The notes under the pieces were generated by a model. The model ran no database searches, was not told the origin of the DNA, and saw only the letters and a list, made by a program, of their open reading frames with translations. 64,000 nucleotides of DNA from Meghimatium bilineatum (taxonomy: Eukaryota; Mollusca; Gastropoda; Stylommatophora; Philomycidae): contig CM067298.1 in the NCBI GenBank assembly GCA_034231615.1, positions 52,356,883 through 52,420,882 of the forward strand. Direction: 5' to 3'. Numbering within the stretch: the first letter of the stretch is position 1; each line of letters opens with the position of its first letter. This document shows positions 4,732 to 63,450 of the stretch, in pieces. Both the position numbers and the translations under genes were made by a program.

Positions 4732-7700
4732 CTGAAATATGACATTAACTTATTTAATCACATGAATAGAAATTTAGATTATTGCTCTTATATATTATTC
4801 TTCTTACATCCTTTCTATATTGTTAGATATCACACATAATTCAGTGTTTCATCATGCACCTCCATTAAATCTCAGAAAGGGATTCAATATTCATGATCAA
4901 AGCTTCTTTTGTCATACAGTATCTCTCTATGTCACTTTCCTTCATTTCCCTGTTGGTTCATATTTAAGGACTTGTTTTGTGATTCTTTTAATTAAGTAAC
5001 TGACACATGCAATGATTTTTTAAATATATTATTAATATTATTAGTGATCAATACATCATTCACTAGGGATGATACGATGATGATAAATAATCTCTTTAGC
5101 TGTGATGAAGGATGACAATGACAAAAAAGCTATTCTATCAAAATGTACCCCATCTGTAATGCAATGGAAGTGAGGATAAAGCTATCTTTGTGAATGATAT
5201 CGATGACAACAAAGTACTAGTACATAGTAAAAAAAATGTGTTTTTTAAATTTATGTATGTCAACTTGTGATTATTTTGCACTGTAGTCCAACAATTGTAT
5301 ACCTTATTGTTATAGTTTTGTTCAAACATTTATGTATCTTGACTTATTATTTCCTCTGTTATTGCAATTATCTCACTGATAGTTACCCACACAAGTACAG
5401 TTATTTGTATACAAATTCTTGAGACTAACGGGAATTGAACCAGTCTGTTCTACGGCACCAAATCGCCTAGCAACAATTGCACACGCGTTCTTCCGTACTT
5501 GACTAACCGCATCTCCCAAAAAAGATGCGATTTCATCACGCCATTCAAACCGTGCACACAAAGTCACCCGAACAGACCAATCGAGACAAGGACTATTACA
5601 ACAACAACAAATATCCCGTACAGGTATTGAAATATCCTCAGTAACAACAAACACATAACATAATATCCGTATTAGTTATTTGTATATGCATTTTGTTTTA
5701 CATGGTTCTATGTATCCATACAATTACTTTGGGCCATACATTTCTATGTGTACATATGCATATGTTATAGCATTGCATGTTAATATCTTCATGTGAACGA
5801 ATGTTTATGGTAATACATGTGTGTGCATGTTTGTGAACTACAACTTACACATTCAAGTCTCAATACTGTCTGTCACTCATGATGTATTAGGATGAAATGG
5901 ACAGAAATACTGAAGTAATAACACATGCTGAATTTGCCAGCTGTTAAGTGTAAATCATGACAACCAACACTTTATAAGGCATGTGGACTAAATTGGGAAT
6001 CACTCTTCTAATGCGGCACATTGGGCTTTTTCCATAATTTTCTATGTCTGTCAAAACAAAATGACTAATTAAAATCATGGGAATAGTCAAATGCATCACT
6101 TAGAAGGATGATGGCAGTTGAAGAAGCAGGGCTTCATAATAGATGACACACATGTAAATAATGGCTTTGGGTCACTTTTACCCTATATGGGATGGAACAG
6201 CAAACTTCACCCCATAACCTCATTAAGCATTTCTTCTGACATGCATGGAAGGTAAATGTTGATTTTCTTTGTTTCCCTCTCAGGCCTCAGCAACACAAAG
6301 GGTTGCGATGGATTAGATCACATAGTATTGATAATGTTTTATGAGAGGATACGAATAACGATACCAGCTGCAATCTTTTAAATGAAACTAGAAAACTTGT
6401 AAGGAATCCTGAAAACATGTAAAAATTACTCATGCTTGACTCTGAGACCATTAGATGTCCATAAGTTTACAAAGAAAATCTGTAATGTTGAAAACACTGA
6501 AATTCTTACTTTGATTATGATAAACATTCATAATATCATTTTGATATGAATACGATATCATTTAGATATTGAAATGAATTGCAAATGATGAACTTGATCT
6601 ATGCCACAGCAATGATTGCATTGATAGTTATCAACAGTGAAGATAGGCAGAACTGCATTAGAGTGATCAATTTGGCTGTTTCCAACCAACTCATTGTCCT
6701 GGTTACTGCTGTGACATTCAAAATGATACTACTTGTAATAAATGCATTACCATCTTCTCTCTCAGACCTGTTAAATATTTTATTTATCCTTCACCAATTA
6801 TAATCAGATTTACAGAAGTTTATCCTACACTTTGGGGCAGCATAGCGTAGTGGTTAGCAATCTAGCTTTGCATATGAGTGGTCCTGGGTTCATTCCCAAC
6901 TTGAAATGGAAATGTTTTTCAGATCACAATGGCTCCCAGGTTGATCCAACCTTAATTAGGTACCGGATTAATCCTGGAAGTAAAGACTGCGGGGGAGAGG
7001 AGATGACTACCGCCCTCATATAGCAGAACCATTGAAATGTGAGATAGCTAACATCTCACACCATACGGCATTAAGAAATGCTATGAGTTAATTTTACTTT
7101 ACATACTTACCCTACACTTATATAACTAAATTAAAAATGTATACATTCTTCTCTCTTTTTTACTTACTCAAATAAAATAGGTAGGTTATGGATCCATGAC
7201 CAGCTGCTAACACAATGAGTTCTGAGGACAAGAAAATAAGTACTTTAAGACACAGCTGTATGACATGTTATTACTGACCTATGAAAAATATCTCAATACA
7301 ATCTTGATGTTCAGTCTGCATAAAAACTTTGGTTCTTATTTGGAATGCATGCCTACTCTTTTTACTATTTTCTTGGCTATGTTTATCAGTTTATGTTTAT
7401 TATTTATAAATTTAAATATAAATTTATTTAGGGTTAGTTATGTTTTGAAACACAACTCTCCTAAACCTAACCAAGTAATATTTAAATAAATTATTGTTGA
7501 TATAATATTTGAATTAATTATCCCTAAAATAAGCAAGTAGGCACATGTTCCAAACAAGAACCACGATTTTAATAAGAAGTCCATACTGCATGATTTAGTC
7601 CTATTCCCCACCTCCCCATTAGCATTTATATTGTCTTCTATAGTTTCAGGTGAACAATTGTTATAATCAGTCTTCTTAGTCTTGTCACTAAATTCCAGAC

Positions 7701-10700
7701 TAAGTCTATTTCAGTAGATTTTTAGCTGGACAGTATACAGACAATATTATTTTTCCCTATAATTCTTATAGCACTTAATTACTATGAACATCATTTATGC
7801 TAGAATAAATTCACCTGTCTTTTGCCAAGAGTCTGAAAGGGCAGCAAAGAATAGCAACACTGTTGCCTGCCATGTATTTTGTAAGAGGTAACTAAGTATA
7901 TTTGGATGTAAAGTTGACTGTCCCATCCCAAAAATCAAAGCCATGCTGAAGTTGATGTGTCAAGTTGAAAGGAGCAGATATCACAAACAAGCTATAGACC
8001 ATGACACAACATATTTCGTACTTCAGACTACATCCTGCTAACCAGGAGTTTGAGAATTAATGTAAAAAAAAAAATGAATGAGAGTATATATGATACTTTC
8101 CTGTTAAGTGGGAACATATATTTGTGTTTTTATGTTTACAAAATCATGCTTTTTAGATAAACTGGGTGTGGGCAACAGTGCATGTCAATAAGACATAATT
8201 TTTATCATTTTTTATGCACACAACAATGACTTCTTTGAATGTTGCTAATGTGGATATTATGAACCTTCAGTGAACCAAGAAATCTTACCAAACAAACAAA
8301 TTAAAATTGTTAGCGTATAAAACTATTGATGTTCGTCCGTCGTAATCAACGATGACCAAAACTCAAACATAATAACAATAAGTAATAAAAAATAATAAAG
8401 CTAATAGTGCGTTTTTATATGACTAACAAGTCCAATGAGCGAACAAAATGTTCTTCTACAGAATTGACAACTGTAGAGGGTGTCTATGGGATGTAGAGAT
8501 GTTTTTTCTTTTCTATGTAATAAAACTATTACACTGATCACCAATACACCTTTATTGACTCCAAGGATGGAGCATGCATACTGTGGAGCTGCTACTAGGC
8601 AGTGGGAATATATATTAAAATGGGAAAAAAAGAACATCATGGAATCCCTAGCAACATCTGGGAAGTTAATTAGCTGAATTCATCTGAGATTCATGACTAT
8701 CAGTCAAGCAAAGCCCATTTGATGTGATTTTGAATAAAATACTATTCCCTAGAATATACTGTAATCATGTTTCATTTTTTAAATTTTTCTTCAAAATAAA
8801 TGTCTAATGAATACATTTCTGAATTGATTGCTTCCCCTTGTTGCAATTATATTATCAGTTGTTCCCCATTTAATCTTGGTTATGATATATTTCTTTCACA
8901 CTACGATTTATTTCCTTAAATGTTCGCTTAAGTATAATGTCCCAGGCACTATTAAAGTGCTGTGTAAAAGAGAGTGCTTAAACTATAGGTGTAGAAAATA
9001 TTGACCTGTAGGTTGATACCATGATCTTAACGGGGATGGGCTGAAGAGTGGTTAGCTCACTGGATTCGCATGAGTTGTGCTGGGTTCATTCCCCAGTTGA
9101 GGCAGAAATGTTTTTCAGACATTACCCTATCAATCCAGCCTTAATTGGGTGCCGGATGATTCCAGGAAGTAAAGACTACAAGGAACAGGAGATGGCTACA
9201 GCCCTCGCATAGCAGAGCCTCTGAAATGTGAATCACTAACATCTCACACCGCTATGGCAGTTAAATGCTATGGGTTACCCTGGTACCTTTTTATTTATTT
9301 ACTTTACCATAATTCTAATTGGAAAAAATAAAAAAATATTTCTGATACACAATAAAGAACAGAATAGTTTTCAACATTACAAAAATTTTATTTACTCCAA
9401 ATTTTTAAAAATATACTTACACTAAGCTACCATGTTCCCCTTTGAGTTCAAAGTTCATTGGTACAAAAAGCTCACTCTCAGAACGGGCAGATATTTCTAA
9501 CGGCTCTGTCTTGTATGCCAAAGATTGTGCAATTACAGCATTCCCATAAAGAGACTTCATAAATACTCCTGTAATCTTCACTGGGAAGAAATTACTGTTG
9601 GACACATTATAAAGGTTCTGAAAACACAAATTACATGTGATATTTTACACAGTGAAAACATGAAATAATATTGTGAACAAATTAAGACTTTTGTAATAGC
9701 ATGACAGGGCAGTGTTATTATCAACTTCAGTGTCTTTTAAATTATTACATTACTTAGTAAAATGTTTTTTTTATTTTTGTAAATTGCTGGTTGTGATTGC
9801 ATATTGTCCTTTACTGATTATGACATGCTGAAGGATTGTGTTTTACATTTCTAATGATGACTGAATTTCATGAGCAGATATCAAATTTTTCTTGAATATT
9901 GGGAAAATATCTACAAATCTCATACAATTTTCAATTTATGGATAACATTGTATGAGTATGAGGTAAATTATTCTTGTGTGAATTTCAGTTTTAGACCACT
10001 AAATCATCCAAAAGCACCATAATGCTGTATATTCTGGTTAACTAGCAAATTCATTCATTTTCCTTTTTTGCGCTGAAGTTAGCACATAGGGCAGATCTCT
10101 CCAATTCTGTCTGTTCAAAGCTATTCTGTGCAGTTCTTGAATAGTATGAATATTAGTTGTTTTACTTTCTCTAAGTATTGTTCTTCTGAGTGTTTCTTTT
10201 GGTCTACACATTGCTCTTTTGCCTGTAGGTATCCGTTCAAGTGATTGGTGGTGTATTCTGTAGGTGTCTGTGCGTAGGACTTGCCCGATGTAGGACCAAC
10301 GGTGTTTTCTGATAACATCTGTGATGAAATTTTGATGTGTCTCTTCTCTGATTTTAACATTGGATTATTGATAATTTGAAGAATCTTGTTTTAAATCGTG
10401 CAGTAAAAATCCTTTCATTGACTGCCTCCCAGCTTAATAACGCTTTTTCAGCCTGAGATGTCCTTATTATTGCAACTCCTTCCACGTGGAGATCAGGTTT
10501 GCCTGAGTAAATAATATGTTTACTGTCATTTCGAGGGTATAATTTCCCGGACCCAGTCCAGCGACACTCACTAATTCCCAAAATATGTATACCATAGTTG
10601 GACATTTCCCTATACACCAACTAGCAAAGAGTTGTGCAATTGATATGGTCAACACTTAAGTATCAAGATAAGACCGTCAAATCTTTATATCATTGAAAAT

Positions 10701-16700: not shown

Positions 16701-19700
16701 GTGACCATGGGTTTAATGTATTAGTTTTCGCTATGTAATTATTTAGTGAGCACCACAACATGCCAGTCTTCTGATTAATGACTTGGGCACTTAATTTATG
16801 TACACAAGCAACCAAAGTAATACACAAGAGCAAGTGGATAAAGTTAAAAATAATCAAACAAAAAATGTTTCAAGAGGAACACGATTAAACATAACTTAAT
16901 TGGTCATCTGTGGTCAGGTAAGGTTGATAGCAAGCCCTTGAGTCTCCTAGGGTGTTTACAAATCCTTGAGTGCATAAACCACAGACAAGGATTTTCCACT
17001 TGTCTCTATTCTTGAATATGTTCTCTGCCTCATTGCATGTGATTCCCCTGTCTTCATGGCCTGTCATCATGTGTTTCTAGGTCTTCCCTGTTCCTTTCAG
17101 GTTCCATGTATTTGTTTTCTATAGCATGTTTCACTAGCTTTACCCTCAAATAAATTGTAATTATCTGATTAAATAACTAACGTATTAATTCCATTTTTCG
17201 CATATGATGTTATATATGGTTAGACCCAATAAATATATACTTTATATTTTGTGCATAATGTCCAGTTTTTTAAATAAAAGAATGAAATCTTTTGATCTTA
17301 TCTGCATACTAATTATTGTGTATCGAGAAAAGAAATGTTACCACTTCAAGCACAGATTCTGTGAGCTGATTAGGCATAGACATGTCTACTATTGCAATAA
17401 TGTATCCCACTATGTTAGCATATGAATACCTGTTGAAGATGATTTCTTAAGTGATAGAGTAGATTCATTGCAGAAATACAGAAATACTTGTGTCAGTCAT
17501 GTGATATATTCTTTCCAGTCTTCCTTATGAATCTCCTGAAATCCCCATGGTCTCTGGCAAGTTGTCCCACTTCCTCCAGCAATATACATTCCTGAATATT
17601 TCTTGTTCAATGACATCTTGGTTGACCTTTGCCTCTACTGCCTTCTTTTGTCCCCTTCAACAACACTCTTTCCATGCCATTGTGTCCCTTCACATGGTAG
17701 AAAAACCTAATTTCCTTCTTAATATAGTGTTTCTTCTTCTTCAGCGTTCATTCTCAAACTCCCGCTGGATCTCTCTTGTAGCAGGACCATGGTCCTATTA
17801 GATTTCCAGCAGGATGCAGTCCAGAGAATGGAAATGTGTTGTATTGCCGTTTTATCTGCGCCAATGGCCCGACACATCCGTCTTCGGCGGAATATAGTGT
17901 TTAAAAGCCAGTCTTCTTTAACATTGACTTTTCTTAGCACATCTTGGTTGGTTTTTCTTACTGTCCATAGTATTCTCAAGACTCTTCTACAGCACTTCAT
18001 TTCGAAGGTTTCTATTCTCTTAGCTGTAATTTTATTTATTATCTATGTTTTGCAGTTTTTCCAGTTTTTTTTCAGCTGTTTTAATTTGGACATTATTATT
18101 GCTGTTCTCCTCCTGATCTCTACTGCAATCTCCTGTGCTCTTTATGTTAGCTCCAAGACATTTGAAATTTATCACTTCTAAAACATTGTTATCAATATTA
18201 ATTCTAGTTCTTGTTTTCAAATTTTTGGTTGTAACTATTTTCTTATATCTAATATTTAGAAAGAGGTTTTGTTGTTCACTAAAGCTTTTTATTGATTTAT
18301 TTGTGATCCGCTCTAATGTCATAAAATTTATTCACAGACTCATTTTTCCTACTAACTACACTCTTTATTTTGAAACGCTTCTGACGGAGATTTTTAGCAT
18401 GCGACCGGATGCAACCTCTAAACAGTCTGTCTTGTGTTCAAGGGTACAAAATAGTCAAATTTCATGCTTAATCAAATGATTAATCATGCCAAGTGTACCA
18501 TAAACAAATGTGTAAATCACCTCAAAACTTACTGTAAAACATATTAAATATGTGTGTGCAATGTGTGTTAACAAGTAGACTTGTGATCTATATCACATAT
18601 AAATGAAAATTGAAACCCATGGCTGCTCTTTATGAAAAAAAAATGAATAGGGTCTATAACAATTCGAATTCACACACAAAATTTAAATTATATGCTGTTA
18701 TATATTTACTGAGATACATCATTTTAAAGTTGGACAAGACTGGTGAAACGTGCTGTAGTGATATCTTTCACTGATTTTCTGAGTGTAAGCCCAATCCATC
18801 TTCATTTTCTCTCCTCAATATGGGTGGCCACCAGATATTTGAGTCTCATATATATGATCACCAGGTCACCCATCAGGTCAAGTAATTTTGACCATTCATA
18901 GCATTCAGATTTGTGGTAGGGACCAGCGTGCAGTGTAAACAATGTTGATAAACAGGTTGTGACACATGGCTGATCTACAAGCAATATAGCTATTGATGTC
19001 CACCATTTAGTGGAATTGGTAAAGACACTGAAGGTATTAGACATCACCATTGAAGTCAGACATGTTGGGCCAGTGACATAAATTAAATAGCAATACATGA
19101 CAACAGCATTCTCTAGACCACATCATGCTGGAAATATAATAGGACCATTTTTCTACTAAAAAAAAGATTCAGCAGGATATAAGAGAATGCTTAAAATTTT
19201 CTTTTCAAATAAAAACCAGAAAAAAACCACCATTTAGTGTACTCTGTGACTGTGTTCCTCGCATTGCTAGTGACCAAAATGAAAGCAATGAATAGAGTAA
19301 CAATGTATCCTGCCATGCATGTCACAAGAGGTGATAAAAGGGAATGTGTGATTGGCCTGGCTACATCAAACTATAAAATATCAAAGGGACTCACAAATCC
19401 CATACTGAAATGCGATATACTAGACTTAGACAGAAAGGCACATATATTGCAATAAAGCTGTAAACCATGACACAACTCTGTCCATTCTCTGAAATACATC
19501 TTGCTAAATGGTAGGAGTTCAAGAACATACACAAAAGACAACTATCAATGACTAACCTTTAGGTACACGACCCAGACCTCTGCAGGAAGGACATGGCACA
19601 CTGTCTTTGAACAGCTCTTCATAACTGTCAGATGTTGCTGTGTTAAATGTGCCAGAGCCGTTCTGTGAAGAACTACCATATCTGTTTGTAGCCATCAAAC

Positions 19701-24590: not shown

Positions 24591-24621
24591 GTTTATATAT
24601 ATATATATATATATTCATTCA

Positions 24622-24871
24622 TTCATTTTCCTTTTGCGCTGAAGTTAGCCATAGGTCAGATCTCTCCAATTCTGTCTGTTCAAAGCTATTCTGTGCAGTT
24701 CTTGAATAGTATGAATATTGGTTGTTTTACTTTCTCTAAGTATTATTCTTCTGAGTATTTCTTTTGGTCTACCCCTTGCTCTTTTGCCTGTAGGTATCCA
24801 TTCAAGAGATTGGTGATGTATTCTGTTGGTGTCTGCGCGTAGGACATGCCCGATGTAGGACCAACGGCGTT

Positions 24872-24872
<1 letters not shown>
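24622..24872 (-). pseudogene. LINE C C-terminal remnant
   Basis: Minus strand: RRWSYIGHVLRADTNRIHHQ, SLEWIPTGKRARGRPKE, ILRRIILRESKTTNIHTIQE, LHRIALNRQNWRDLTYG. It matches the C-terminal half of the 10060-10660 copy. It is flanked by TA arrays on both sides, so insertion next to, or expansion of, TA repeats is likely. Confidence 0.75.
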
Positions 24873-25876: not shown

Positions 25877-26074
25877 CAATCACTTCCGGGATAATGGCGC
25901 GAAGCGACAGCTGTGTTAGTTCTTGTAACCGCAAATGTACATCCAGTTCAATGTTCAGGAATCTTCACATGGAATATATGGTGTACATCTGTTTGTATTA
26001 GAGATAGTGGTGTAGCCATGTGCATTTCCTGTTACAAACAAGGATACATGATTAGCAAATCGTCAGTGACAACA

Positions 26075-27356
26075 AAATGGCTCGCAGTAAAATGGAAAGC
26101 CTAGAACCATACATCCTAACATCCAAAATTGAAGACGCAATCAGGCCATTGGCACTAGACACAATCCTAGAAAAAGAGAGACTTATGGTGTGTGGTGACT
26201 TCAACCGCCACTCTCAGAGTTAGGGCTACTATCACATGGACAAGAGAGGTGAGGAACTTGAGAGCTGGCAGGATGAAAATAAGCACATACTTATTAACCA
26301 GCCAGCAGACTCACCAACCTTCTACTCGAGAGCATGGCAGACCAGACCTGGCATTCCACTTATCAGGTCTTGAATGGAACATCACACCTGTAGTTGAAAA
26401 GCAGCTTGGAGTTAGTGACCACAAACCAGAATTTTTAGAAATCCACAATGAATTCAAGGATATCAGCACAATCACTTGGTGAAACTATAAGCATATGTAC
26501 CAGCATTTAACCAGTGCTCTTGCTAAGGACATAAACGTGGGCAAAGACAGAAATAGAGTAGTGAGTGAACTTAATAGATGCATACTACATGCTGCTAGTA
26601 AAACCATACCGGGGGGGGGGGGGAGGCACACACAAACTACAAACCCGATTGGAATGATGAACTGGAGAAGCTGCAAAATGTGATAGAAACATCTAGGCAG
26701 CAGGCAAAGCACAGATCCAGCCAAGAACATCACAACAAATATCAGCAAAGACTAAATTTTAAAAAGAGCCAAGTTAGAAGCCAGACGGAGCAGCTGGAAA
26801 GAAAAAACAGAATCGCTGAACCTTAAAAGAGACATTAGAAAATTATGGAAACTGGTAAAGCAACTAAATGATGAAGGTACAAGGAGAAATACAAGGATCA
26901 CACTTTATAAAGATAGAAACATTATAACAGGTAAACATGCAGCCGATTACTTTGCAGAAGACAAGAACATCAAAGTTAGCCCAGACAAACAATAGGAGAT
27001 TCGAGAGAACCAGCAAAACATTGGACAAGACGAACCAATACTTGAAGTCATTGAGGCACCAATCACACTGAAATAATGGATCATGTAATATTCAAATTGA
27101 AAACAAAAAATCCACAGCAGGTGATAGTGTCCAATGAAATGATTGAAAACCTGGGAACTGCAGCAAGAGAAAAGCTACTGCAGATCTTCGATACAAGCTG
27201 GACCACAGGTAATGTTCCTCGGGCATGGTGGGAAGCAATAATGACACCACTCCACAAATCAGGAAAGATGACAACAGTCTCCAATTACAGGCCCATCAGC
27301 CTCACAAGATATTTATGCAAAACAATGGAATGGATTTTAAATCTTAGCATGCAGTA
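26075..27356 (+). pseudogene. LINE A: endonuclease, linker and RT start
   Basis: Plus strand in broken frames: RLMVCGDFNRHSQ (endonuclease D-N motif), LGVSDHKPEFLE (S-D-H motif), YKPDWNDELEKLQNVIETSR linker, then an open stretch 27076-27350 with WTTGNVPRAWWEAIMTPLHK and VSNYRPISLTRYLCKTME, the first RT motifs. Several stop codons and frameshifts. This is the 5' part of the element resumed at 29248 and 31122. Confidence 0.85.
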
Positions 27357-27770
27357 TATATCAAGTGACATACTCTTTCCAGAACGTTGTCTTCGTCGTG
27401 GATACTCTGAACGCCTCTGTTCCGGGCAAGCAGGCCTGCATTGGCCAAAGACGTGCATACATTATTCGATGTCGCTGGTCCACCGTCTTCTTGGTCTTCC
27501 CCCTCTCCTTCCTGCCACTCTGCCCTCTAGAATCAGCCTTTCGATGCCATCATGTCGCTTTAAGTATCCAAAATACTGTAGCTTCTTTCTCATGATGGTA
27601 TTTAGAAGCCACCCTTCGTTTAGTTTCAGTAATTTCACAATTTCAATGTTCTTCTATTTCTCTGTCCATGATATTCGTAGGATCTTCTGTGGTACTTCAA
27701 TTCAAATGAATTTATTCTTTTGGATATTGTCTAATGTATCTATTTTGAATTTCTAGGCACATTACTCCCG
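27357..27770 (-). pseudogene. LINE D 3' end inserted in LINE A
   Basis: Minus strand: VPQKILRISWTEK, LNEGWLLNTIMRKKLQYFGY, LKRHDGIERLILEGRVAG, RRGRPRRRWTSDI. It ends at plus-strand TCAAGTGACATACTCTTTCC. It lies between the first RT motifs of LINE A and the later ones. Confidence 0.8.
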
Positions 27771-29247: not shown

Positions 29248-30088
29248 TATAGCAGCATGGATAGACCTCAGGAAAGCATTTCACAATGTTTAGAAAAAAG
29301 GACTCTTAAAGAAATTTGCAGGGTTAACTCTAGAATGTACAAATGGATAAAAGCATATCTTCAAATTATAAAAGAACAGAGATACAATTGGATGGTCACA
29401 AGAGCAAGAACGTCCTAATGCGTTATGGAGTCCCTCAGGGAAGAGACCTGTCACCCACACTTTTCGTGGTTTACATCAATGACCTAGTTGCCGAACAACC
29501 ACATGTGATCAAAGTGGTAATGTATACTGACGACCTGGTGATCTGGTACACGAAAGAATAATCAGTGATCACTAAACAAATACGAAGAGCTATTGATGCC
29601 TTAACCCTATTGGCAAATATAAGTTGCGTCAGCATTATCACAGAAAAGGGCAGCAATGCACTCTTTACCCTCTCGCCAAAACAAAAAGCAGGTGTTATCA
29701 AGATAGATGGAGAACTTTTGAAAGAAGACAACCTACACCCGAGTTACTTTTGATAAGCTGATATGGAATCAACACATAAACAAAGCAACAACAAAAGCCA
29801 GAAAGAATTTAGCTATCCTGATGAAACTAAGTAGAACCACATGGGAAGACAGCGGGAATGTAATCCGTAAAGTTTACCAGCAGGGTATAAGACCAGACGT
29901 GGAATATGGTTCAGCTGCGCTGTGTCCTGTATCAAACACCACATTAAAGGATCCAGATAAAGTGCAAAACCAGGAAAATTGAATAATGTTGGGAGCAATG
30001 AAATCAACACCTATAGTAGAGATACATAAAATGGGGAGAACGCAAACACATGGCGAACGCCGAGACATAAAAGTACTAATACAAGCAA
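29248..30088 (+). pseudogene. LINE A: RT palm and thumb
   Basis: Plus strand: WIDLRKAFHNV (RT motif A), KNVLMRYGVPQGRDLSPTLF (motif B), VYINDLVAEQPHVIKV, VMYTDDLVIWYTKE (motif C; YTDD where most have YADD), then ALFTLSPKQKAGVIKIDGEL and RTQTHGERRDIKVLIQA. Continuous with the intact copy at 47803-49575, at about the same residue order. Stops and frameshifts throughout. Confidence 0.85.
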
Positions 30089-31121
30089 TGTATCTTCCCT
30101 ACAAGCAGGGATCTTCTATTTGCTGATGACTGTGCCCTAAATGCCAACTCTGAGGCTGATCTACAATGTATTATAGACAGATTTTCCAAAGCATGTACCA
30201 ACTTTGGGCTTACCATTAACACAGAGAAAACAGAAGTCATGTTACAGCCAGCACTTGGCTAAAGCTATCTCGAGCCCTTCATAAAGGTAAATGGTGTAGC
30301 ACTGAAAGTTGTGAATAGATTCACATATCTAGGCAGTACGTTATCACAAAATGCCAACGTTGATGATGAAGTGTATACAAGGATCGCCAAAGCAAGCAGT
30401 ACTTTAGGCAGATTGTACGCAAATGTTTGGCGTAGAAATGGCATTAACCTACAGACTAAGCTGAAAGTTTACAGAGCAGTGGTACTTCCAGTGCTGTTAT
30501 ACGCTAGTGAAACATGGACTGTGTATAGACATGTGAAAAAACTCAATAATTTTCATACAAATTGTCTCAGAAAATTTATTAAAATCAGATGGCAAGACAA
30601 GATTCCAGATACCACTGTCCTTGATAGAGCTGGTATCCCAAGCATTGACACGATCCTGATGAAGACACAGATTGGTTGGGCAGGTCATCTGATGCATATG
30701 CCAGACCATCGTCTGCCAAAGATACTTCTCTATGGTGAGCTAGAGAAGGGTATACGATCTCAAGGTGGCCAAAGGAAGCGCTACAAGGACTCGTTAAAGA
30801 ACTCACTGAAAGCCTTTGAAATAGACCACGATACATGGGAAGAACTTGGACAAAATAGATCTACATGGCGTTTTAAAATTAAAAAGAGCGCATCATCTTG
30901 TGAAAAGAAGAGAAATGCAGCAGCTCAACAGCGAAGAGCAGCTAGAAAGACACGGATAGACCAAGATCCGACTACAGTCGTCATTCCATGTCCAAACTGT
31001 CCAAGGACATTTACAGCTCGAATAGGGCTCATTAGCCATCTACCAACTCATAATCTAAAATTGAATTTTCAAAAGTGGATGTAACAAATGGTCATCATCA
31101 CTTGTGATGGACGAACAACAA
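30089..31121 (+). mobile_element. LINE B, 5'-truncated, with a 257-residue open frame
   Basis: It begins in the RT palm (QGSLFADDCALNANSEADLQ) and is open from 30311 to 31084: RFTYLGSTLSQNANVDDEVY, LLYASETWTVYRHVKKLNNF, WQDKIPDTTVLDRAGIPSID, GWAGHLMHMPDHRLPK, then the C2H2 finger CPNCPRTFTARIGLISHLPT ending in H. The 3' UTR has GGTCATCATCACTTGTGATG then GACGAAC. It is inserted between IQA and EKFQCMPSH codons of LINE A, so it is younger. A stop at 30262 separates the FADD segment from the open frame. Confidence 0.88.
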
Positions 31122-32165
31122 CACACGCAGAAAAGTTTCAGTGTATGCCAAGTCATCCAATGAAGGAAAGATTCCAAAATGTAGCAATGGGGCGACTGAA
31201 AAGAAGCAGCTTTATCCACCAAGCTAAACAACTCCGCAGACAACTTACAGATCTAGACCTACCTGAAGTTCATAGACCCATACGGTCTGTATCAGAACAA
31301 ACCCCTTGGAGTGAAAAACATGAAATATCAATATACATTCAGACCCATGTGAAAGGAATACTTACGAAGACGAACAGAACAGAGTGCAACGAAGGGCAGT
31401 CACCCTCAGTTTCCTGGATAAGGAATATCCACAAGACATATGGGCCAGAGTATGCACAGATGGATTAGCACAGAAAGCTGTGAGAAATGGAGATACATGT
31501 GTGTATATAGAATATCCACTAAAGTCTACAGATACGATAAGAACACCAAAATGGAAATTCTGCAATAATTATGATGCAGAAATCCAGGCAATTAGGGTGG
31601 CATCTAAAAAACTGCTGAACTTCAACTCTGGCCCACAGGTCGTGGTATTCCTAACAGATGCAAGGTCAGTACTTCAAGCTCTCCAGTCTGGAAAATTAGC
31701 ATACTTACAAAAACTACTTAATGATGATGAATATCAAAATCTTACAATGAACTGTCGTAACCATGCAGTGGATACCCTCTCACTGTGGAATACCAGGAAC
31801 TGAAAAAGTAGATCAACAGGCTAAGGAAGGTGCTGCCGAAGACCAACCAGATATACTAATCACCTAGTATCAGAAAAAATAGATGATCAAGTCAATAAGA
31901 AAGCCACAAACACCAACACAAGATGTCTATCACATTATGAAAAGAACAGAACAAGTTGTAATTCTACGCCTCAGAACGGGACACAACCGACTCCGCAGTC
32001 ACATGTACACAAAATTCAAGATTGACAATGAATGAAATCCTTTGGCATGTGTACATGCAACACAGAGTTTCAAACATATACTTCAAGAGTGTTCTGAGTA
32101 TGACACGCTGAAGCAGACATATTGGCCAGAGGAAACAACACTGGAATCAAAACTGTATGGAAGCT
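31122..32165 (+). pseudogene. LINE A: connector, RNase H and C-terminus
   Basis: Plus strand: AEKFQCMPSHPMKERFQN, then the RNase H domain in two frames: VCTDGLAQKAVRNGDTCVY, NNYDAEIQAIRVASKKLLN, VVFLTDARSVLQALQSGK, a frame-broken GIPGTEKVDQQAKEG block, and HILQECSEYDTLKQTYWPEE. Colinear with 47886-48990 minus. It ends near 32165. Confidence 0.85.
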
Positions 32166-36780: not shown

Positions 36781-36791
36781 AACAACAAGAT

Positions 36792-36943
36792 CCGCCGGAG
36801 ACGGATGTGTCGGGCCATTGGTGCAAATAAAACGGCGAGACAACGCATTTCCATTTTCTGAACTACATCCTGCTGGAAATCTAGCAGTACCATGGTCCTG
36901 CTAGATTCAGTAGGAGTTTGAGAATGAACGCAGAAGAAGAAGA
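36792..36943 (+). mobile_element. SINE-1 copy with 11-bp target duplication
   Basis: Flanked by AACAACAAGAT on both sides (36781-36791 and 36944-36954). Reads in sense: CCGCCGGAGACGGATGTGTC, GGGCCATTGGTGCAAATAAA, ACGGCGAGACAACGC, CATCCTGCTGGAAATCTAGC, the palindrome around ACCATGGT, and a (GAA)n tail. The insertion site is inside older repeat sequence. Confidence 0.88.
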
Positions 36944-36954
36944 AACAACAAGAT

Positions 36955-39894: not shown

Positions 39895-40030
39895 TATTTT
39901 CTTTTTTTTGCATTCATTCTCAAATTCATGAAGATTATCAGTATGTAGCGTGGAGAATGGGATGTGTTGGATCACGGTTTATAGCTTGGCTGCAAAATCT
40001 ATGCCATTTGACATGACGCATCCGTTTTCA
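39895..40030 (-). repeat. SINE-2 fragment (tail part)
   Basis: On the minus strand: ATGCGTCATGTCAAATGGC, CCAAGCTATAAACCGTGATC, CACATCCCATTCTCC and TTTGAGAATGAATGC, the SINE-2/LINE A tail order. It adjoins the LINE I copy. Confidence 0.45.
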
Positions 40031-40235
40031 GCATCAGAATAATACTAACATATATAAACAAACAAAAAAGCAGCCTTAGGTTACTTTTGTTGTATTTATG
40101 TGGGAGTCATATGAAAAGGAGTTGGGCACTTCATGGCAACAATAAAATTTCACAGAAAAAAAAAAATAGGGATACAGAAAGATAATGTTTGACAGTGAAT
40201 AAGGATGACAGAGGATGTTGGGCATTGAATAAGGA

Positions 40236-42185: not shown

Positions 42186-42197
42186 ATTTATCTTATT

Positions 42198-42450
42198 TTT
42201 ATTCTGTGTTCATTATCAAACTCCTGCAGATTAGAAGATTGTAGTCCAGAGAACGGAATGTGTTGTGTCATTGTTTACAGCATGGCTGGGATATGTTCGT
42301 CTTTTGGCCGATTTCAGAATGGCTTTTGGGCGACTTTGACTCTCTATAGAATGGAACAACAAATTCCACTCCAAAACATCCTTCGGCATGCATGGCAGGT
42401 AACAGTGTTACTATTCTTTGCTCCCCTTTGAGCAACAACACACGTGCAAA
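42198..42450 (-). repeat. SINE-2 copy, most complete
   Basis: Minus strand: GGAGCAAAGAATAGTAACAC, TGTTACCTGCCATGCATGCC, TGTTGTTCCATTCTATAGAG, CGGCCAAAAGACGAACATAT, GCTGTAAACAATGACACAAC, ATTCCGTTCTCTGGACTAC, CTGCAGGAGTTTGATAATG, AACAC. Longer head than SINE-1 but same tail. Directly adjoins the LINE I 3' end. Confidence 0.65.
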
Positions 42451-46899: not shown

Positions 46900-47795
46900 G
46901 TTCTGAAATTTGACATGAAACACAAAAATGGCATACAACACTAGGTGGTTGATAGATTTACTTCAAATAAACAAATTATGATCAGTAAATAAACAATGAA
47001 GACACCTAATTTAGTAAGATTCGATAGCAACATTTCAAGACAAGTAAAATTGAGGGTGAGTAGAATAAAATGCACGTCAAAAAAATTTATTTTCGCCTGA
47101 CATCCCTATTTATGGTTAATTTTTGTTATTATTGTTACGATTCTTATATTTTTATATTGTGTATGGATTCCATATTCAATTATTATTCTTGTGATGACCT
47201 TCAATAGTTAATACTTTGCCTTCATGAAGCTTGTGCCTAAATCATGTTGCAACCCAAAATTTAGCATAAAATTAATTACACCCAAACCCCAGAATAGTTG
47301 CATCCTGAGAGAGTTAACCAATGCAACGAAAATATTCTGGAGAAATTCATGTCTAAATGATTAGAAAATAATTTGTTTAAAAAGCTTGATAGATGGATAG
47401 CTAAAGCTTAGGCCTACTAAGGTAGGTCCCAAGACAGCAATCTGCCGTCATGTACTACTCATGTACTAAGCAGCAACAACTAATATTAACTAGTTACTAT
47501 ACAGAAAATAAATTGAAGATCAAGAAGGGAAAACATTACTGAAGTTCATTAAGAAAGGTACATACTCTTGCCAAGCAGGGATCTAAGCAAGAAACTGAAA
47601 AAAAGCTCAACAATAGATAAAAACACAAAAGTTTAGTAAATAAAGCTCCAAAAAATGGATTACTAAAATCCACATACAATAATACAATCTAATTTTAGCA
47701 CTTACAAACACAACTTTAATACATTCATCAAAACTTAGTGAATAAAAATCACTATTTATTCAAAAGAAAAAACTAAATGGATGGAAATCTTATTT
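46900..47795. other. No gene or repeat recognised
   Basis: AT-rich sequence between the piggyBac remnant and LINE A; nothing supported. Confidence 0.4.
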
Positions 47796-47802
47796 CATCT
47801 TC

Positions 47803-49575
47803 ATTGAACATTCTTAAACTCCTGCTGGATTTCTCTTGTAGCAGGACAATGGTCTACTAGGTTGTCAGCAGGGTGTAGTCTGTAGTCAAGAGAATAGAAA
47901 TCCTTTGTTTTGCCGTTTTATTTTATACAGTGTCCCATAGAGTTTTGATTCCAGTGTTGTTTCCTCTGGCCAATATGTCTGCCTCAGCGTTTCATGCTCA
48001 GAACACTCTTGAAGTATATGTTTGGCACTCTGTGCTGCCTGTCCACATGTACACATGGCCGTGTTGCCAATTTTGAACTTTGTATACATGTGACTGCGGA
48101 GTCGGTTGTGTCCTGTTCTGAGACGTAGAATTATAACTTGTTCTGATCTGTTCATATTGTGATAGTCATCTTGTGTTGGTGTTTGTGGCTTTCTTATTGA
48201 CTTTATCATCTGTTTTTTCTGATGGTAGGTGATTGGTATATCTGGTTGGTCTTCGGCAGCACCTTCCTTAGCCAGTTGGTCTGCTTTTTCATTTCCTGGT
48301 ATTCCACAGTGAGAGGGTATCCACTGCATGGTTACCCTATACTGGTAAGACAATTCGCTAAGTAGTTTTTTTAAGTCTGTTAGTTTTCCAGACTGGAGAG
48401 CTTGAAGCACTGACCTTGCATCTGTCAGGAATACCACAGGCTGTAGGTCAGAGTTGGAGTTCAGCAGTTTTTTAGCTGCCACACTAATTGCCTGGATTTC
48501 TGCATCATAATTATTGCAGAATTTTCCTGTCGGTGTTCTGATTGTATCTCTAGGCTTGTGTGGATATTCTATATATACACCTGCACCTCCATTCCTCACA
48601 GCATTCTGTGCTGACCCATCTGTGTACACTCTGACCCATATATCTTGTGGATATTCCTCATCCAGGAAACTGAGGGTGATTGTCATTCGCTGCACACTGT
48701 TCTGTTCGTCCTCGCTTAGTATTCCTTTCACATGGGTCTGAATGTATATTGGCATTCCATGGCTTTCACTCCACGGGGTTTGCTCTGGTACAGACCTTAA
48801 GGGGCTGCCAACTTCAGGTAGGTCTGTAAGTTGTCTACGGAGTCGTTTAGCTTGATGGATAAAGCTGCTCCTTTTCAGTCGTCCCATTGCTAGATTTTGG
48901 AATCTTTCCCTCATTGGATGACTTGGCATACACTGAAACTTTTCTGCTTGAATTAGTACTTTTGTGTCTCTGCGTTCGCCAAGTGTTTGCATTCTTCCCA
49001 TTTTCTGCATCTCTGCTATGGGTGTTGATTTCATTGCTCCCAACATTATTCTAAGTGCCTGGTTTTGCACTTTATCTAGATCTTGTAATGTGGTGTTTGA
49101 TGCAGGACACCACGCAGCTGAACCGTATTCCAGGTGTGGTCTTATGCCTTGCTGGTAAACTTTACTGAGTATATTTCCACTGGCTCCCCATGTGGTTCCA
49201 CTTAGTTTTCTCAGGATAGCTAGCTTCCTCCTGGCTTTTGTTGTTGCTTTGTTTATGTGCTGCTTCCATGTCAGCTTATCATCAAAAGTAACTCCGAGGT
49301 ATGTGGGTTGTTTGTCTTCTTTCAAGAGCTCTCCATCTATCTTGATATGACCAGCTTTTTGTTTTGGTGAGAGGGTAAAAAGTGTAGTGCTGCACTTATC
49401 TGTGTTAATGCTGACGCACCATCTATTAGCCCATAAGGTTAGGGCATCGATAGCTCTTTGTATTTGTTTAGTGGCCACTGTTGCATGTTCTTCCGTGCAC
49501 CAGATCACCAGGTCGTCAGCATACATTGCCACTTTGATCCCGTGAGGTAGTTCAGCAACTAGGACTGGAAGAATG
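47803..49575 (-). mobile_element. LINE A, 5'-truncated but with a long intact ORF
   Basis: The ORF is open on the minus strand from about 49575 to the TGA at 47886 (548 residues from the first Met). It starts in RT motif C (VAMYADDLVIW), continues through GELLKEDKQPTYLGVTFD, KLTWKQHINKATTKARRKL, AEKFQCMPSHPMRERFQN, then a complete RNase H: VYTDGSAQNAVRNGGAGVYI, YDAEIQAISVAAKKLL, VVFLTDARSVLQALQ, WIPSHCGIPGNEKADQLAKE, and the C-terminus CTCGQAAQSAKHILQEC. All four RNase H acidic residues are present. The 3' UTR (47885-47803) carries the stem-loop region shared with SINE-1. Endonuclease and fingers are lost by 5' truncation, so it is not autonomous. No stop codons suggests a relatively young copy. 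Confidence 0.93.
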
Positions 49576-49595
49576 ATAGTTTGTCCTTCATTCAG

Positions 49596-49660
49596 TCGAG
49601 ATTGATTATCAATTTCTCAGAGACATCTCGAGATTGCTTATCAATTTCTCAGAGACATCT
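49596..49660. repeat. 32-bp tandem duplication at the LINE A 5' junction
   Basis: TCGAGATTGATTATCAATTT then CTCAGAGACATC occurs twice in a row (one mismatch), about 20 bp beyond the LINE A truncation point. Confidence 0.9.
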
Positions 49661-53383: not shown

Positions 53384-53718
53384 AAAATAACTCAGATAAT
53401 TAAGAAATTGTCAGCTCAGTTTCATGTTTGGGATCAAGTTTTATTTATATTTTCCTGTTTCATGTAAATTATTTTGATTTCAAATTAATTAGAAAAAAAT
53501 TCAGAACTTTTTTCAAGGTTGACGTACAGACTTTGTTGATGTATCGTTGAATTGCAATTTTCAAGGGCTATCTAAATATAGTATTTTTAATGATGTAGCA
53601 TTATTTTGAAAATTTTGTCCAAGTACCTACTAAGTTGACGCTGCGTGCTGCATCTCATTGGCCGACAGTTTTTCTAGCGGAACTCCGTGACCTCGCCTAC
53701 TTAGAAATGTAAATAGCG

Positions 53719-53840
53719 TGCTATTTATAGCATAGCGGAGAACTTTTCTTTACTTTCACCTAAATTAGGAATTAAGGCCTACATTTTAGGCCTACTCCTA
53801 TGAAAGTAAAGAATAGTTCTCTGCTGTGCTATAAATAGCA
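53719..53840. repeat. Hairpin with 40-bp arms and 42-bp loop
   Basis: The left arm 53719-53758 begins TGCTATTTATAGCATAGCGG and ends CTTTACTTTCA; the right arm 53801-53840 is its reverse complement with three mismatches in 40. The arms contain the AGCGGAGAAC motif of the outer inverted repeats, so the hairpin may be a collapsed copy of the same family. Confidence 0.85.
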
Positions 53841-54679
53841 CAATTTTGACAATATTAACTATCCAACGTCATGGATTCCCGTGTAACACCAATCAAAATA
53901 ATGGCTGCCGTGACGTCACATCTGACAATCACTTGAGTTCAAATCTAGACACAGATGAACTTATGCATAATCTGTTTGTTTTCCAATTTACACATTTTTT
54001 ACAATTTCCTATTATTTGTGGTGAGCGATCAGTATTTCTGCCCGCTATACACGGAGCGAGGTGCGCGCACACATTAGAAATATTATTTCTAATCCTAACC
54101 TTACTCTAAGTACTTACCCGTAAGCTTGCCAAATCACACAACAAAGGTCAAGTAACACCTCGATACTAGAGCAAAGGTCACAGCGGAGAACTATAATTTA
54201 CTTCAGCCGTTAGTTAACTTAGGTACAGCAGGGAGAGAGAGTCAAGACTAATTGAATAATAATACCAATATCTGAAAAAAACATTCAATACCCAAAATTG
54301 AAACTTTCTAGACGCGTAAGCTTAGTGCAATAATTATTAAGATTATCACAATTTACTCATAGCAGCTAATCGTTTATTTTGTTTGCTTTTCCTATCAACA
54401 AACTACGCTGACACCTTTTCTTTTATTTACACACTTAACACACCTTGTTTGTATTTGTGTCTACACACACGCATAGTTCGTATAAACGGATGTTCAATAG
54501 TTGCTAGTTGCACAATATTTGTCTAATTATAACATAACATTTTTCCACTAATAAAATGTAAATATCATAGACCTATAATAATAGTTTTCTGTCGCGAAAT
54601 ATTTTATGGACTTGCAAATCTGTGCGTACCCAAATCTGTTTAGAAATAGCAAAATGGTGTTGAGCTCACCGCTTGCAAT

Positions 54680-55016: not shown

Positions 55017-55160
55017 TTCTGTGTCCATTCTCAAGCTCATGCAGATCAGCAGGATATATTCCAGTCCAGAGAATATAGTCAGCTGTGCCATGATTTACAG
55101 CTTTGCTGACACATCCGACTTCAGAATACCTTCTGGGCCAATTTGACACTGTGGTATGAG
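55017..55160 (-). repeat. SINE-2 fragment (tail part)
   Basis: Minus strand: TCTGAAGTCGGATGTGTCAG, CAAAGCTGTAAATCATGGCA, ATTCTCTGGACTGGAATATA, TCCTGCTGATCTGCATGAG, CTTGAGAATGGACAC. The 94-residue frame across it is not a gene. Confidence 0.5.
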
Positions 55161-55414
55161 ACCATGCCATATATTTTTGCAAGGGGAGGGAGGGGTTCCC
55201 TAAAAAAAATAGGTCTTTCGTGTTTTTATGTGTAACAGTTTTTCTTGATGACCTTTACGTGAAAATCGCTACGGGGGAGGGTGGCTATTTAGCCTGTTGG
55301 CCAAAGAGATGACTGAATGAAAAGTTCAAACCTCTGCCACTTTTGGGCTTTTATGATCAGAATTGGACATCTGCGTGTTTGTTGTTTTTTTGTTTTTTTA
55401 TCTTTCGGGCAGCA

Positions 55415-56055
55415 TGCATTCTCTGTGTTATACGCTAGTGAAACATGTACTGTGTATAGACGTCATGTGAGGAAACTCAATCACCTTCACACAACTTGTC
55501 ACAGAATAGTTATGAACATCAGATGGCAAAACAAAATTCCAGATATTACAGTCCTTGACAGAGCTGGTATCCCCAGTATTGACATTATCCTGATGCAGAC
55601 ACAGATGCGTTAGGCAGGTCATGTGGTGCGTATGCCAGACCATCGCCTGCTAAAGATACTTCTCTATGGTGAGCTGGAGAAGGTTACACGATCTCAAGGT
55701 GGCTTAAAGCAACGCTACTAGGACTCGTTAAAGACATAGCTGAAAGCCTTTTAAATAGACAAAGATAGAGAAGAACTTGCACAAAATAGATCTACATGAC
55801 GTTCTACAAAAAAAAAAAGAGCGCATCATCTTGAGAAAAAAGGAGAAATGCAGCAGCTCCAACTGCGGAGAGTAGCTAGAAATCAACGGATAGACTAAAA
55901 TCCGTCTACAGTGGTAATTCCATGCCAGAACTGTCCAATGTCATTTACAGTTCATTAGCCATCTACGAACTATTATGCATGGTCATAATTCAAACTGAAT
56001 TTTCAAAAGTGGATGTAAAAAATATGGTCATCATCATTTATGATGGACGAACACA
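55415..56055 (+). pseudogene. LINE B 3' half, degenerate
   Basis: VLYASETCTVYRRHVRKLNH, LHTTCHRIVMNIRWQNKIPD, ITVLDRAGIPSIDIILMQ, then frame-broken AGHVVRMPDHRLLKILLYGE and a decayed finger (CQNCP). The 3' UTR mark ATGGTCATCATCATTTATGA then TGGACGAAC ends it. More mutated than the 30-kb copy. Confidence 0.8.
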
Positions 56056-56639: not shown

Positions 56640-57325
56640 TATAGACTGTTTAATGCGTGTATTGACATCAATCAATCAAGTGCCGTGGCGTAGTCGATCA
56701 TTCTTCTGCACAACTCTATGCCTCTTGTGTTATTTAACAAGTTCATTTGGTGACCCATCCAGAAATATTTTTCGTCCTGTCTCCCCCCCCCCCTTTTGAT
56801 CTTTCAGATGGTTACTAAATGTTCACGTTTTGCTTTTTTTTTCATAACATTCCTTACAAATCTTGATTGTCTGCTTTTAATTGTTACTATAATTTGTCGT
56901 TTTACTTCAGCATCTGAGGACTTCTGCATTAGTTTTCTTGGCTGTCCATGTAATTTTCATAATTATTCTTTAAAAAAAACCATCTCAGTTGCCTCCAGCT
57001 TATCTTGAGCACTTTTGTATGTCCATGATGATATGTTTCTTTTTCACAGCTTTTTTGCATTTAACCATTCCTTCTTAGCTGTGTTGCATTTATGTTTAAT
57101 TTCTTTAGTTTATCTTGTTATACTCTGTAATTTTAGCCTTCAGCTTTCTTCTTTGTTCCATCAACTTTAAGATATCTTCTGTCATCCAATCTTTCTTTGT
57201 TAGATGTTTCTTAAGTGGTGGGATATCTGCAGAATTTTGCTGTATAGATTATTTTAAGATCATCCACTGTTCGTCAACGGTTTCTATATTCTCTATGGCA
57301 TTGTACCTATTTTGTATTGCTATAT
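56640..57325 (-). pseudogene. LINE with endonuclease-RT linker joined to C-terminus
   Basis: Minus strand: DEQWMILKSIQQNSADIPP (reading past one stop), LKKHLTKKDWMTEDILKLME, QRRKLKAKITEYNKIN: the linker before RT in many LINEs. Soon after: GQPRKLMQKSSDAEV, TIKSRQSRFVRNVMKKK, and GGGRQDEKYFWMGHQMN: C-terminal blocks. The RT domain is absent, a second case of the internal deletion seen at 10060-10660. Confidence 0.5.
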
Positions 57326-59540: not shown

Positions 59541-59553
59541 CTGAATGTACGTT

Positions 59554-59709
59554 CTTCTTCAGCGTTCATTCTCAAACTCCCGCTAGATTTCTCTTGTAGC
59601 AGGACAATGGTCCTACAAGATTTTCAGTTGAATATAGTCCAGAGAATGGAAATGCGTTGTGTTGCCATTTTATTTGCGCCAATTTCCCAACACATCCGTC
59701 TTCGGCGGA
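59554..59709 (-). mobile_element. SINE-1 copy with 11-bp target duplication
   Basis: Flanked by GAATGTACGTT (59543-59553 and 59710-59720). Contains the full SINE-1 order: CCGCCGAAGACGGATGTGTT, ATAAAATGGCAACACAACGC, TTCCATTCTCTGGACTATAT, CTACAAGAGAAATCTAGCGG, GAGTTTGAGAATGAACGCTG and (GAA)n. Confidence 0.88.
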
Positions 59710-61560: not shown

Positions 61561-62045
61561 TTCGACTCTCTATTTTATAGAGTTAATAATTATTGTTGAT
61601 TGCACTTCCGCGCTTCACTAGCAACTACACTATTTATATATTTGTTATTGTTTCCTGTTGATATCGCGAATTAGATATTATAATAATGTCTTTGCAGAGG
61701 AAATTTCAAAACCATTTAGTACAAAATATACTTAAAAATAGCAAAGGAAACCTGGAAAGGCCATGTCGATGTAAGTGCTAATATTGACTGAAGGCAATGC
61801 AATTTGACTATTAACATCCACAGTTCAGTCTCAGTACTTTCTTGCTATAATTTGGACACTTAGGCCCTACTTATAATATAAGTGATATAAGTTATATCAT
61901 ATATAAAATACATAATGATAATACAATATAATATTGAATATTGTATATATTTGAATATTTAGATAGCACTTAAAAATTGAAATTTAGCCGTCTGTACGTC
62001 CATCATGAAAAAAGTTATACTTATAGAGGCCTATGTTTTTGAATT
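61561..62045. other. No gene recognised
   Basis: AT-rich, with AATATAATATTGAATATTG palindromic runs near 61925. Confidence 0.4.
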
Positions 62046-62194
62046 TCTTCTTCAGTGTTCATTCTCCCGCTGGATCTGCCTTGCAGCAGGACAATGACCC
62101 TACTAGATTTCGAGCAGGATGTAGTCCAGAGATGGGAATGCGTTGTGTCCCCCTTTTATTTGGAACAATGGCCAGACACATCCGTCTTTGGTGG
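62046..62194 (-). mobile_element. SINE-1 copy, target duplication diverged
   Basis: Full SINE-1 order with several substitutions and a small deletion in the tail (GTTCATTCTCCCGCTGG). The flanks GTTTTTGAATT and GTTTTCAAATT are similar but not identical, consistent with an aged duplication. Confidence 0.8.
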
Positions 62195-62279
62195 AGTTTT
62201 CAAATTAATTTGGCATCAAAATAATTTAAGCCCTACATGAAAGATATGCCGATAGCCTATGCCTATTCATTTATTAGGT

Positions 62280-63296: not shown

Positions 63297-63450
63297 TATT
63301 CTTCTTCTTCAGAGTTCATTTTCAAACTCCCGCTGGATCTCTCTTGTAGCAGAACTACTAGATTTCCAGCAGGATATAGTCCAGAGAATGGAATGCGTTG
63401 TGTCGCCGTTTTATTTGCACCAATGACCCGACACATTCATCTTCGCTGGA
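63297..63450 (-). mobile_element. SINE-1 copy with 11-bp target duplication
   Basis: Flanked by GGTAAGGCTAT (63286-63296 and 63451-63461), inside the LINE RT sequence. Slight decay of the head (plus-strand TTCATCTTCGCTGG) and loss of the central palindrome by a short deletion. Confidence 0.88.

What the first reader, a model, noticed from the sequence alone, without database searches (positions are those of the whole stretch)
17733..17890. A short SINE built from a ~36-nt head and the LINE A 3' end (SINE-1)
Five copies (17733, 36792, 59554, 62046, 63297) share the same ends; four have clear 11-12 bp target duplications. From ATAAAACGGCAA to the (GAA)n tail they match the final codons and 3' UTR of LINE A at 47803-47920, including the CTACAAGAGA and CCAGC-GGAGTTT blocks. 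This is the signature of a SINE mobilised by a partner LINE through a shared tail. The head is unusually short and not an obvious tRNA, 7SL or 5S.
Basis: partly seen in the sequence, partly recalled or inferred. Interest (0 to 1): 0.8.

Follow-up and report, generated by a model that had tools for sequence, protein, structure and literature searches.

The report
Short LINE-tailed SINE, recycled head
This is a short parasitic DNA repeat that very probably copies itself with the enzymes of a larger repeat whose 3' end it carries; that arrangement is well known, but its tiny front part seems to be a leftover of an older, longer repeat instead of a usual start signal.

Summary
Five ~160-bp copies share one 5' start (TCCGCCG...) and a (GAA)n end; four of five have exact 11-12-bp target duplications, the fifth is imperfect. 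A sixth, degraded copy lies at 19047-19189. From AAATAAAACGGC on, the element matches the last codons and 3' UTR of LINE A (RT + RNase H); before that point similarity is background. The reading as a SINE with a LINE-derived tail is supported.

The ~36-nt head has no Rfam match at curated thresholds and no good Pol III A/B boxes. New here: an older repeat (six copies) carries a related head upstream of a related tail that lacks 37 nt of the hairpin. One copy (55150) joins older upstream sequence, head and tail; another (40032) starts at the head, as SINE-1 does. SINE-1 is most simply a 5'-shortened relative of that older LINE-tailed retroposon. Three other copies match the head weakly or not at all, so this step is probable, not shown.

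Open: LINE A's 5' end (SIDE reading), promoter, host, copy number, database status. The genome search did not complete (13 calls); no outside relatives were found. New member of a known kind; moderate interest.

The parts
17731..17891 (-). SINE-1 copy 1, closest to the consensus; TSD AAACACTATATT in element orientation
36791..36944 (+). SINE-1 copy 2, TSD AAACAACAAGAT; 7-nt gap on the 3' side of the tail hairpin
59552..59709 (-). SINE-1 copy 3, TSD AACGTACATTC
62045..62195 (-). SINE-1 copy 4, imperfect TSD only
63299..63450 (-). SINE-1 copy 5, TSD ATAGCCTTACC; 8-nt gap at the hairpin tip
19047..19189 (+). SINE-1 copy 6, old and degraded, with head, tail and hairpin region
   Evidence: BLAST with the hand consensus E 2e-20; nhmmer E 1.7e-33 with a profile that included it; K2P 0.48
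47794..47937 (-). LINE A last codons and 3' UTR, the stretch shared with the SINE-1 tail
47886..49616 (-). LINE A open frame: end of reverse transcriptase, RNase H, C-terminus
   Evidence: Pfam RVT_1 2.8e-7, RNase_H 4.3e-16; frame
29483..32160 (+). second LINE A copy (29483-30087 and 31124-32160), split by an inserted repeat; its last ~140 nt do not align
42193..42450 (-). older related repeat (OLD), long copy; 5' end uncertain
7821..8075 (+). OLD long copy; 5' end uncertain
19261..19545 (+). OLD long copy; 5' end uncertain
6160..6298 (-). OLD copy, 5' half only (no head or tail)
   Evidence: nhmmer E 2.7e-20
55017..55162 (-). OLD copy that joins older upstream sequence, a clear head match (55107-55125) and the tail
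39899..40046 (-). OLD copy that starts at about the head (clear head match 40014-40032) and has the tail without the hairpin part

Best explanation
SINE-1 is a non-autonomous retroposon of about 160 nt. About 125 nt are a LINE-derived tail (last codons, 3' UTR hairpin, (GAA)n) and about 36 nt are a head. Its RNA is recognised at the 3' end by the reverse transcriptase of a LINE of LINE A's kind and copied at a nicked target (TPRT), leaving 11-12-bp duplications. The head is a remnant of the body of an older, longer LINE-tailed retroposon (OLD); SINE-1 is a 5'-shortened relative that kept or regained mobility. Shown: family, boundaries, TSDs, tail homology, no match to known RNA genes. Inferred: the partner's action, the role of the hairpin, descent of the head from OLD. 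Unknown: the promoter. As no good A/B boxes are seen, I think transcription from a promoter outside the element at one or few source copies, or a short promoter in the head, is more likely than a tRNA-type Pol III promoter.
For: Common start and end in five of five copies, exact TSDs in four of five. Tail homology to LINE A in five of five with a sharp junction: in the 34 nt before AAATAAAACGGC 12 match LINE A, a value reached at 114 of 1789 LINE A positions. Five of the six OLD copies reach the tail; in 80 columns present in the SINE-1 consensus, the OLD consensus and LINE A, 55 are alike in all three, 12 join SINE-1 with OLD, 9 SINE-1 with LINE A, 3 OLD with LINE A. Head and OLD: in an ungapped scan with a 19-column head profile over 127,964 positions, the best two outside the five copies lie in OLD copies 55150 and 40032, upstream of their tails; the summed score over five OLD copies was reached by 2 of 2000 shuffled heads. 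Copy 55150 also has OLD sequence upstream of the head (summed score against four OLD copies reached by 2 of 2000 shuffles). No Rfam match at gathering score in the window; only sub-threshold ones at E up to 10 in the two SINE-1 copies tried; no tRNA; best A box 3 and best B box 4 mismatches in a hand consensus. The 3' hairpin of copies 17733, 36792 and 63297 folds at z -3.2, -4.0, -4.4.
Against: The head match is clear in two of five OLD copies (55150: 2, 40032: 0 of 2000 shuffles), weak in 7978 (91) and 42343 (237), absent in 19470 (1804): the three long copies are the poor ones. Copy 40032 has no detectable OLD sequence upstream of the head (1670 of 2000 shuffles), so the link rests mainly on 55150. 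In the profile scan the OLD hits (15.1, 14.4 bits) are followed closely by one antisense site found in both LINE A copies (13.0). In a gapped scan a LINE endonuclease-like site at 26131-26153 scores 28, the OLD sites 27 and 26; 0.2 and 0.425 hits at or above 28 and 26 are expected per shuffled head (40 shuffles). The hairpin shows no compensatory pair (0 of 27 pairs); copies 59554, 62046 and LINE A fold at z -0.8, -1.7, -1.5. The degraded 19052 copy shows that the SINE-1 layout is itself old, so which form came first is open.
Confidence: 0.55

Rival explanations
1. SIDE: the head is the 5' end of LINE A (or a close relative) and SINE-1 is an internally deleted LINE that carries the LINE's own 5' promoter or ribozyme.
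For: SIDEs of this build are known (PMC6740152, PMC3414825) and a review table lists SINEs whose head is the 5' end of an RTE or BovB (PMC3747384). It would explain the missing A/B boxes and the fixed 5' end. A LINE endonuclease-like site resembles the head, though it is inside a coding stretch.
Against: In OLD copy 55150 the head follows OLD upstream sequence, unexpected for a LINE 5' end. No Rfam ribozyme match. The direct test could not be made: I found no LINE A 5' end in the window.
Confidence: 0.22
2. Classic SINE with a new, unrecognised Pol III head: a separate small-RNA-derived module fused to a LINE A-type tail; the likeness to OLD is chance or later exchange.
For: SINEs with a head of unknown origin on a LINE tail are reported (ZenoSINE, PMC6685494; Entamoeba and Chlamydomonas entries in PMC3747384). 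The head folds into two small hairpins, and three of five OLD copies do not clearly match it.
Against: No good A/B box and no RNA-family match; likeness to OLD upstream of the tail; 36 nt would be a very short promoter module.
Confidence: 0.17
3. Repeated 5'-truncated copies of a LINE subfamily close to LINE A, with no separate element.
For: In the LINE A frame the hand consensus of SINE-1 is open for 45 codons through the junction, and 5' truncation is usual for LINEs.
Against: Five of five copies start at the same base while truncation points should scatter; likeness to LINE A ends at the junction.
Confidence: 0.06

Closest known systems
LINE-tailed SINEs of the stringent type (58 SINE/LINE pairs in PMC3747384; passages and table 1 seen)
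   Same: 3' end shared with a LINE, short 3' repeat, stem-loop in the tail
   Different: Most listed SINEs have a tRNA or 5S promoter; SINE-1 shows none. Its tail reaches into the last codons and is about three quarters of the element.
Gecko SINE of Aedes aegypti with an I-clade partner; SINE2-1 of Anolis with a Vingi partner (table 1 of PMC3747384)
   Same: Partner LINE in or near the I group, where LINE A (RT plus RNase H) seems to belong; this placing is recalled, not tested by a tree
   Different: Both are listed with a tRNA promoter
ZenoSINE of heliconiine butterflies (PMC6685494, passages seen)
   Same: LINE 3' tail fused with a 5' head of unknown origin
   Different: Its tail is from Zenon LINEs; the SINE-1 head can probably be traced to an older repeat
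SIDEs: Persaeus/Zenon (PMC6740152, abstract and two sections seen) and R2, R2/R1 SIDEs (PMC3414825, abstract seen)
   Same: Short, LINE 3' end, thought to move with LINE enzymes
   Different: Their 5' part is a LINE 5' end; here that could not be tested, and the OLD evidence speaks against it

Membership tests
SINE with partner-LINE tail | Dispersed short copies with common ends | tested here: met
   5 of 5 copies
SINE with partner-LINE tail | Target site duplications | tested here: met
   exact in 4 of 5, imperfect in 1
SINE with partner-LINE tail | 3' end homologous to a LINE of the same genome | tested here: met
   5 of 5;
SINE with partner-LINE tail | 3' stem-loop supported by compensatory change | tested here: inconclusive
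   stable fold in 3 of 6 sequences, no compensatory pair among 27
SINE with partner-LINE tail | Pol III promoter head (tRNA, 5S or 7SL derived) | tested here: not met
   no Rfam or ARAGORN match, no A/B box with fewer than 3 mismatches; usual for SINEs but not without exception in the review table
SINE with partner-LINE tail | Mobilised in trans by the partner | not testable with these tools
   needs a retroposition assay
SIDE | 5' end homologous to the LINE 5' end | not testable with these tools
   no LINE A 5' end found in the window; genome search unanswered in 13 tries
SIDE | 3' end homologous to the LINE 3' end | tested here: met
   64 of 80 compared columns alike
OLD repeat (defined in this report) | Tail shared with SINE-1 | tested here: met
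   nhmmer with the OLD profile finds five of five SINE-1 copies, E 1e-10 to 1e-5
OLD repeat (defined in this report) | Head shared with SINE-1 upstream of the tail | tested here: inconclusive
   clear in 2 of 5 copies with a tail, sum over 5 reached by 2 of 2000 shuffles; only one of the two clear copies also has OLD sequence upstream

The most novel reading that the evidence does not exclude
SINE-1 is a minimal retroposon without an internal Pol III promoter, born by 5' shortening of an older LINE-tailed retroposon. It keeps an exact 5' end and was mobile over a long period, from deeply degraded to about 5% diverged copies. A LINE 3' end with hairpin and (GAA)n, plus any fixed transcript start, would then suffice to found a SINE family. 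Copy 40032, which starts at the head but lacks the hairpin part, could be a form between the two.
Probability: 0.28. Interest if true: 0.5.

Novelty: new member of a known kind. Interest (0 to 1): 0.33.

Why it matters
SINE families normally have a promoter head and, often, a LINE tail. A family whose head is only a scrap of an older tailed element would show how small the head can be, and would let one test whether tail recognition by an RNase H-bearing LINE is enough. It also warns that a short unknown head need not be a new RNA gene.

Tried and rejected
RNA-gene origin of the head: Rfam scans of the window (gathering score) and of two of five SINE-1 copies (E up to 10) gave nothing relevant (the 13 sub-threshold matches were mostly miRNA models, with some bacterial, lncRNA and CRISPR-repeat ones); ARAGORN found no tRNA. 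Two of six OLD copies also gave no relevant match. An A-like and a B-like box with 2 mismatches each appear in a hand-made OLD consensus; not tested for chance, not relied on.

Self-cleaving ribozyme head: tested only through Rfam and one motif look.

Head as continuation of the LINE A coding end: rejected; 12 of 34 matches ungapped (reached at 114 of 1789 positions), and gapped score reached at 231 of 596 positions. Head from a LINE endonuclease region: not compelling.

Hairpin by covariation: no support. RNAalifold also pairs the head (columns 17-22) with the tail start (46-51): 3 of 6 pairs change on both sides, and 0 of 500 shuffles reach its covariation score, but a slide by -3 scores as high, the structure was derived from these seven rows, and one row is LINE A, which lacks the head. 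Left as inconclusive.

Relatives elsewhere: viral contigs with a head pattern, a shared-tail pattern, an OLD pattern, a 3'-end pattern and the LINE A protein, none; genome contigs with the shared-tail pattern, none, and with the LINE A protein, 8 pattern matches but no relative; phages and plasmids, none. These collections are viral or prokaryotic, so absence says little.

Papers: searches. One search found no paper of the library with any of six consensus pieces in its text. Dfam, Repbase and SINEBase could not be consulted, so the family may be catalogued there. The MetaSINE paper is not held.

Full report
What was checked. Five of five start at the same base and end in (GAA)n. Four of five have exact 11-12-bp target duplications that begin at the element ends; one is imperfect. 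The flanks do not align beyond the ends, so the element is not an inner piece of a longer repeat at these sites. A sixth, strongly degraded copy lies at 19047-19189.

The LINE. The window frame 47886-49616 (-) holds the end of a reverse transcriptase and an RNase H (Pfam RVT_1 2.8e-7, RNase_H 4.3e-16). SINE-1 and LINE A are alike from AAATAAAACGGC to the end, over the last codons, the stop and the 3' UTR. In front of that, 12 of 34 positions match, reached at 114 of 1789 positions of LINE A. LINE A's second copy (29483-32160) does not align over the last ~140 nt, so one LINE A 3' end was available; SINE-1 and LINE A agree in 64 of 80 columns compared with OLD and in 111 of 140 overall. The placing in the I group is recalled from the domain set, not tested by a tree; a survey reports Nimb and Ingi as the I-superfamily clades of molluscs, beside an Unknown clade from Octopus sinensis (PMC10294476, passages). 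That the host is a mollusc, perhaps an octopus, is my guess from repeat content and was not tested.

The head. No match to RNA families at gathering score and only irrelevant sub-threshold ones in the two copies tried; no tRNA; no A or B box with fewer than 3 and 4 mismatches. Weak BLAST hits led to an older repeat, here called OLD. Six copies were found; pairwise identity is 54-69% over 15 pairs. Five of six reach the tail, which lacks 37 nt of the hairpin region. Three of these five are long, with ~130-140 nt upstream of the head position; a sixth copy has the 5' half only. Tests of the head: in an ungapped scan with a 19-column head profile, the best two of 127,964 positions outside the five SINE-1 copies are in OLD copies 55150 and 40032, upstream of their tails; the summed score over five OLD copies was reached by 2 of 2000 shuffled heads. 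Copy 55150 has OLD sequence upstream of the head (2 of 2000 shuffles), copy 40032 has none detectable (1670 of 2000) and so starts at about the place where SINE-1 starts.

Against this. The three long copies match the head weakly or not at all (237, 91 and 1804 of 2000 shuffles for 42343, 7978 and 19470). An antisense LINE A site follows closely in the profile scan (13.0 against 14.4 bits), and a LINE endonuclease-like site at 26131-26153 scores 28 against 27 and 26 in a gapped scan. The head-OLD link is therefore probable, resting mainly on one copy.

The tail hairpin. Three of six sequences fold far better than shuffles (z -3.2, -4.0, -4.4), three do not (z -0.8, -1.7, -1.5). No compensatory pair is seen in seven sequences. 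OLD keeps only the base of the stem. Recognition of the hairpin by the partner enzyme is inferred from the known stringent type (PMC3747384, passages and table 1), not shown.

How it works, as far as can be said. RNA with a fixed 5' end; 3' end recognised by a LINE A-type enzyme; target-primed reverse transcription; 11-12-bp duplications. The promoter is unknown. Five copies are at K2P 0.045-0.115 from their consensus and one at 0.48, so the layout is old and was active over a long time.

Known kinds. SINE/LINE pairs with a common tail are well known; partners of the I clade (Gecko) and Vingi are listed; promoters of unknown origin are listed for Entamoeba and Chlamydomonas elements (PMC3747384); a head of unknown origin is reported for ZenoSINE (PMC6685494, passages); SIDEs are known (PMC6740152, abstract and sections 3 and 13; PMC3414825, abstract). 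A 2026 Octopus vulgaris survey lists 893 unclassified SINE families among its recently active ones (PMC13282606, passages), so an unnamed SINE would be no surprise if the host is of that kind. SINE-1 is a new member of a known kind, if it is not catalogued already.

Limits. The genome of the window could not be searched. No outside relative was found in viral or prokaryotic collections. Repeat databases were not at hand. All counts rest on one 64-kb window.

Noticed in passing
29483-32160: LINE A copy split by an inserted piece (about 30088-31123) alike to repeats at 55426-56053 and 57325-58079; its frame ends in a stretch that looks like a C2H2 zinc finger by eye, though Pfam gave no match.
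   Followed up: partly
26056-27350: Degraded LINE-like coding upstream of the 29483 copy, with a GDFN motif seen by eye; may belong to that LINE A copy, but Pfam gave no match for 27055-27756 and no LINE 5' end was seen.
   Followed up: partly
6160-6298, 7821-8075, 19261-19545, 39899-40046, 42193-42450, 55017-55162: Old repeat (OLD) with a LINE A-type tail lacking the 37-nt hairpin part; the nature of its 5' half is unknown.
   Followed up: partly
columns 17-22 with 46-51 of alignment A1 (head with tail start of SINE-1, e.g. 17875-17841): Predicted stem joining head and tail with changes on both sides in 3 of 6 pairs; a slid control scores as high.
   Followed up: partly
10049-10307 and 24617-24872: Direct repeat, 94% alike over 259 bases; not identified.
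   Followed up: no
53678-53881: About 204-base stretch that matches its own reverse complement at 72%, a fold-back repeat.
   Followed up: no
62667-63254: Reverse transcriptase frame of another retroelement (Pfam RVT_1 9e-23) between two SINE-1 copies.
   Followed up: no
47794-47937: The LINE A 3' end carries a doubled GACTACA that the SINE-1 copies lack; OLD copy 55150 has a different small insert there. Private to this copy or a family difference, not known.
   Followed up: no
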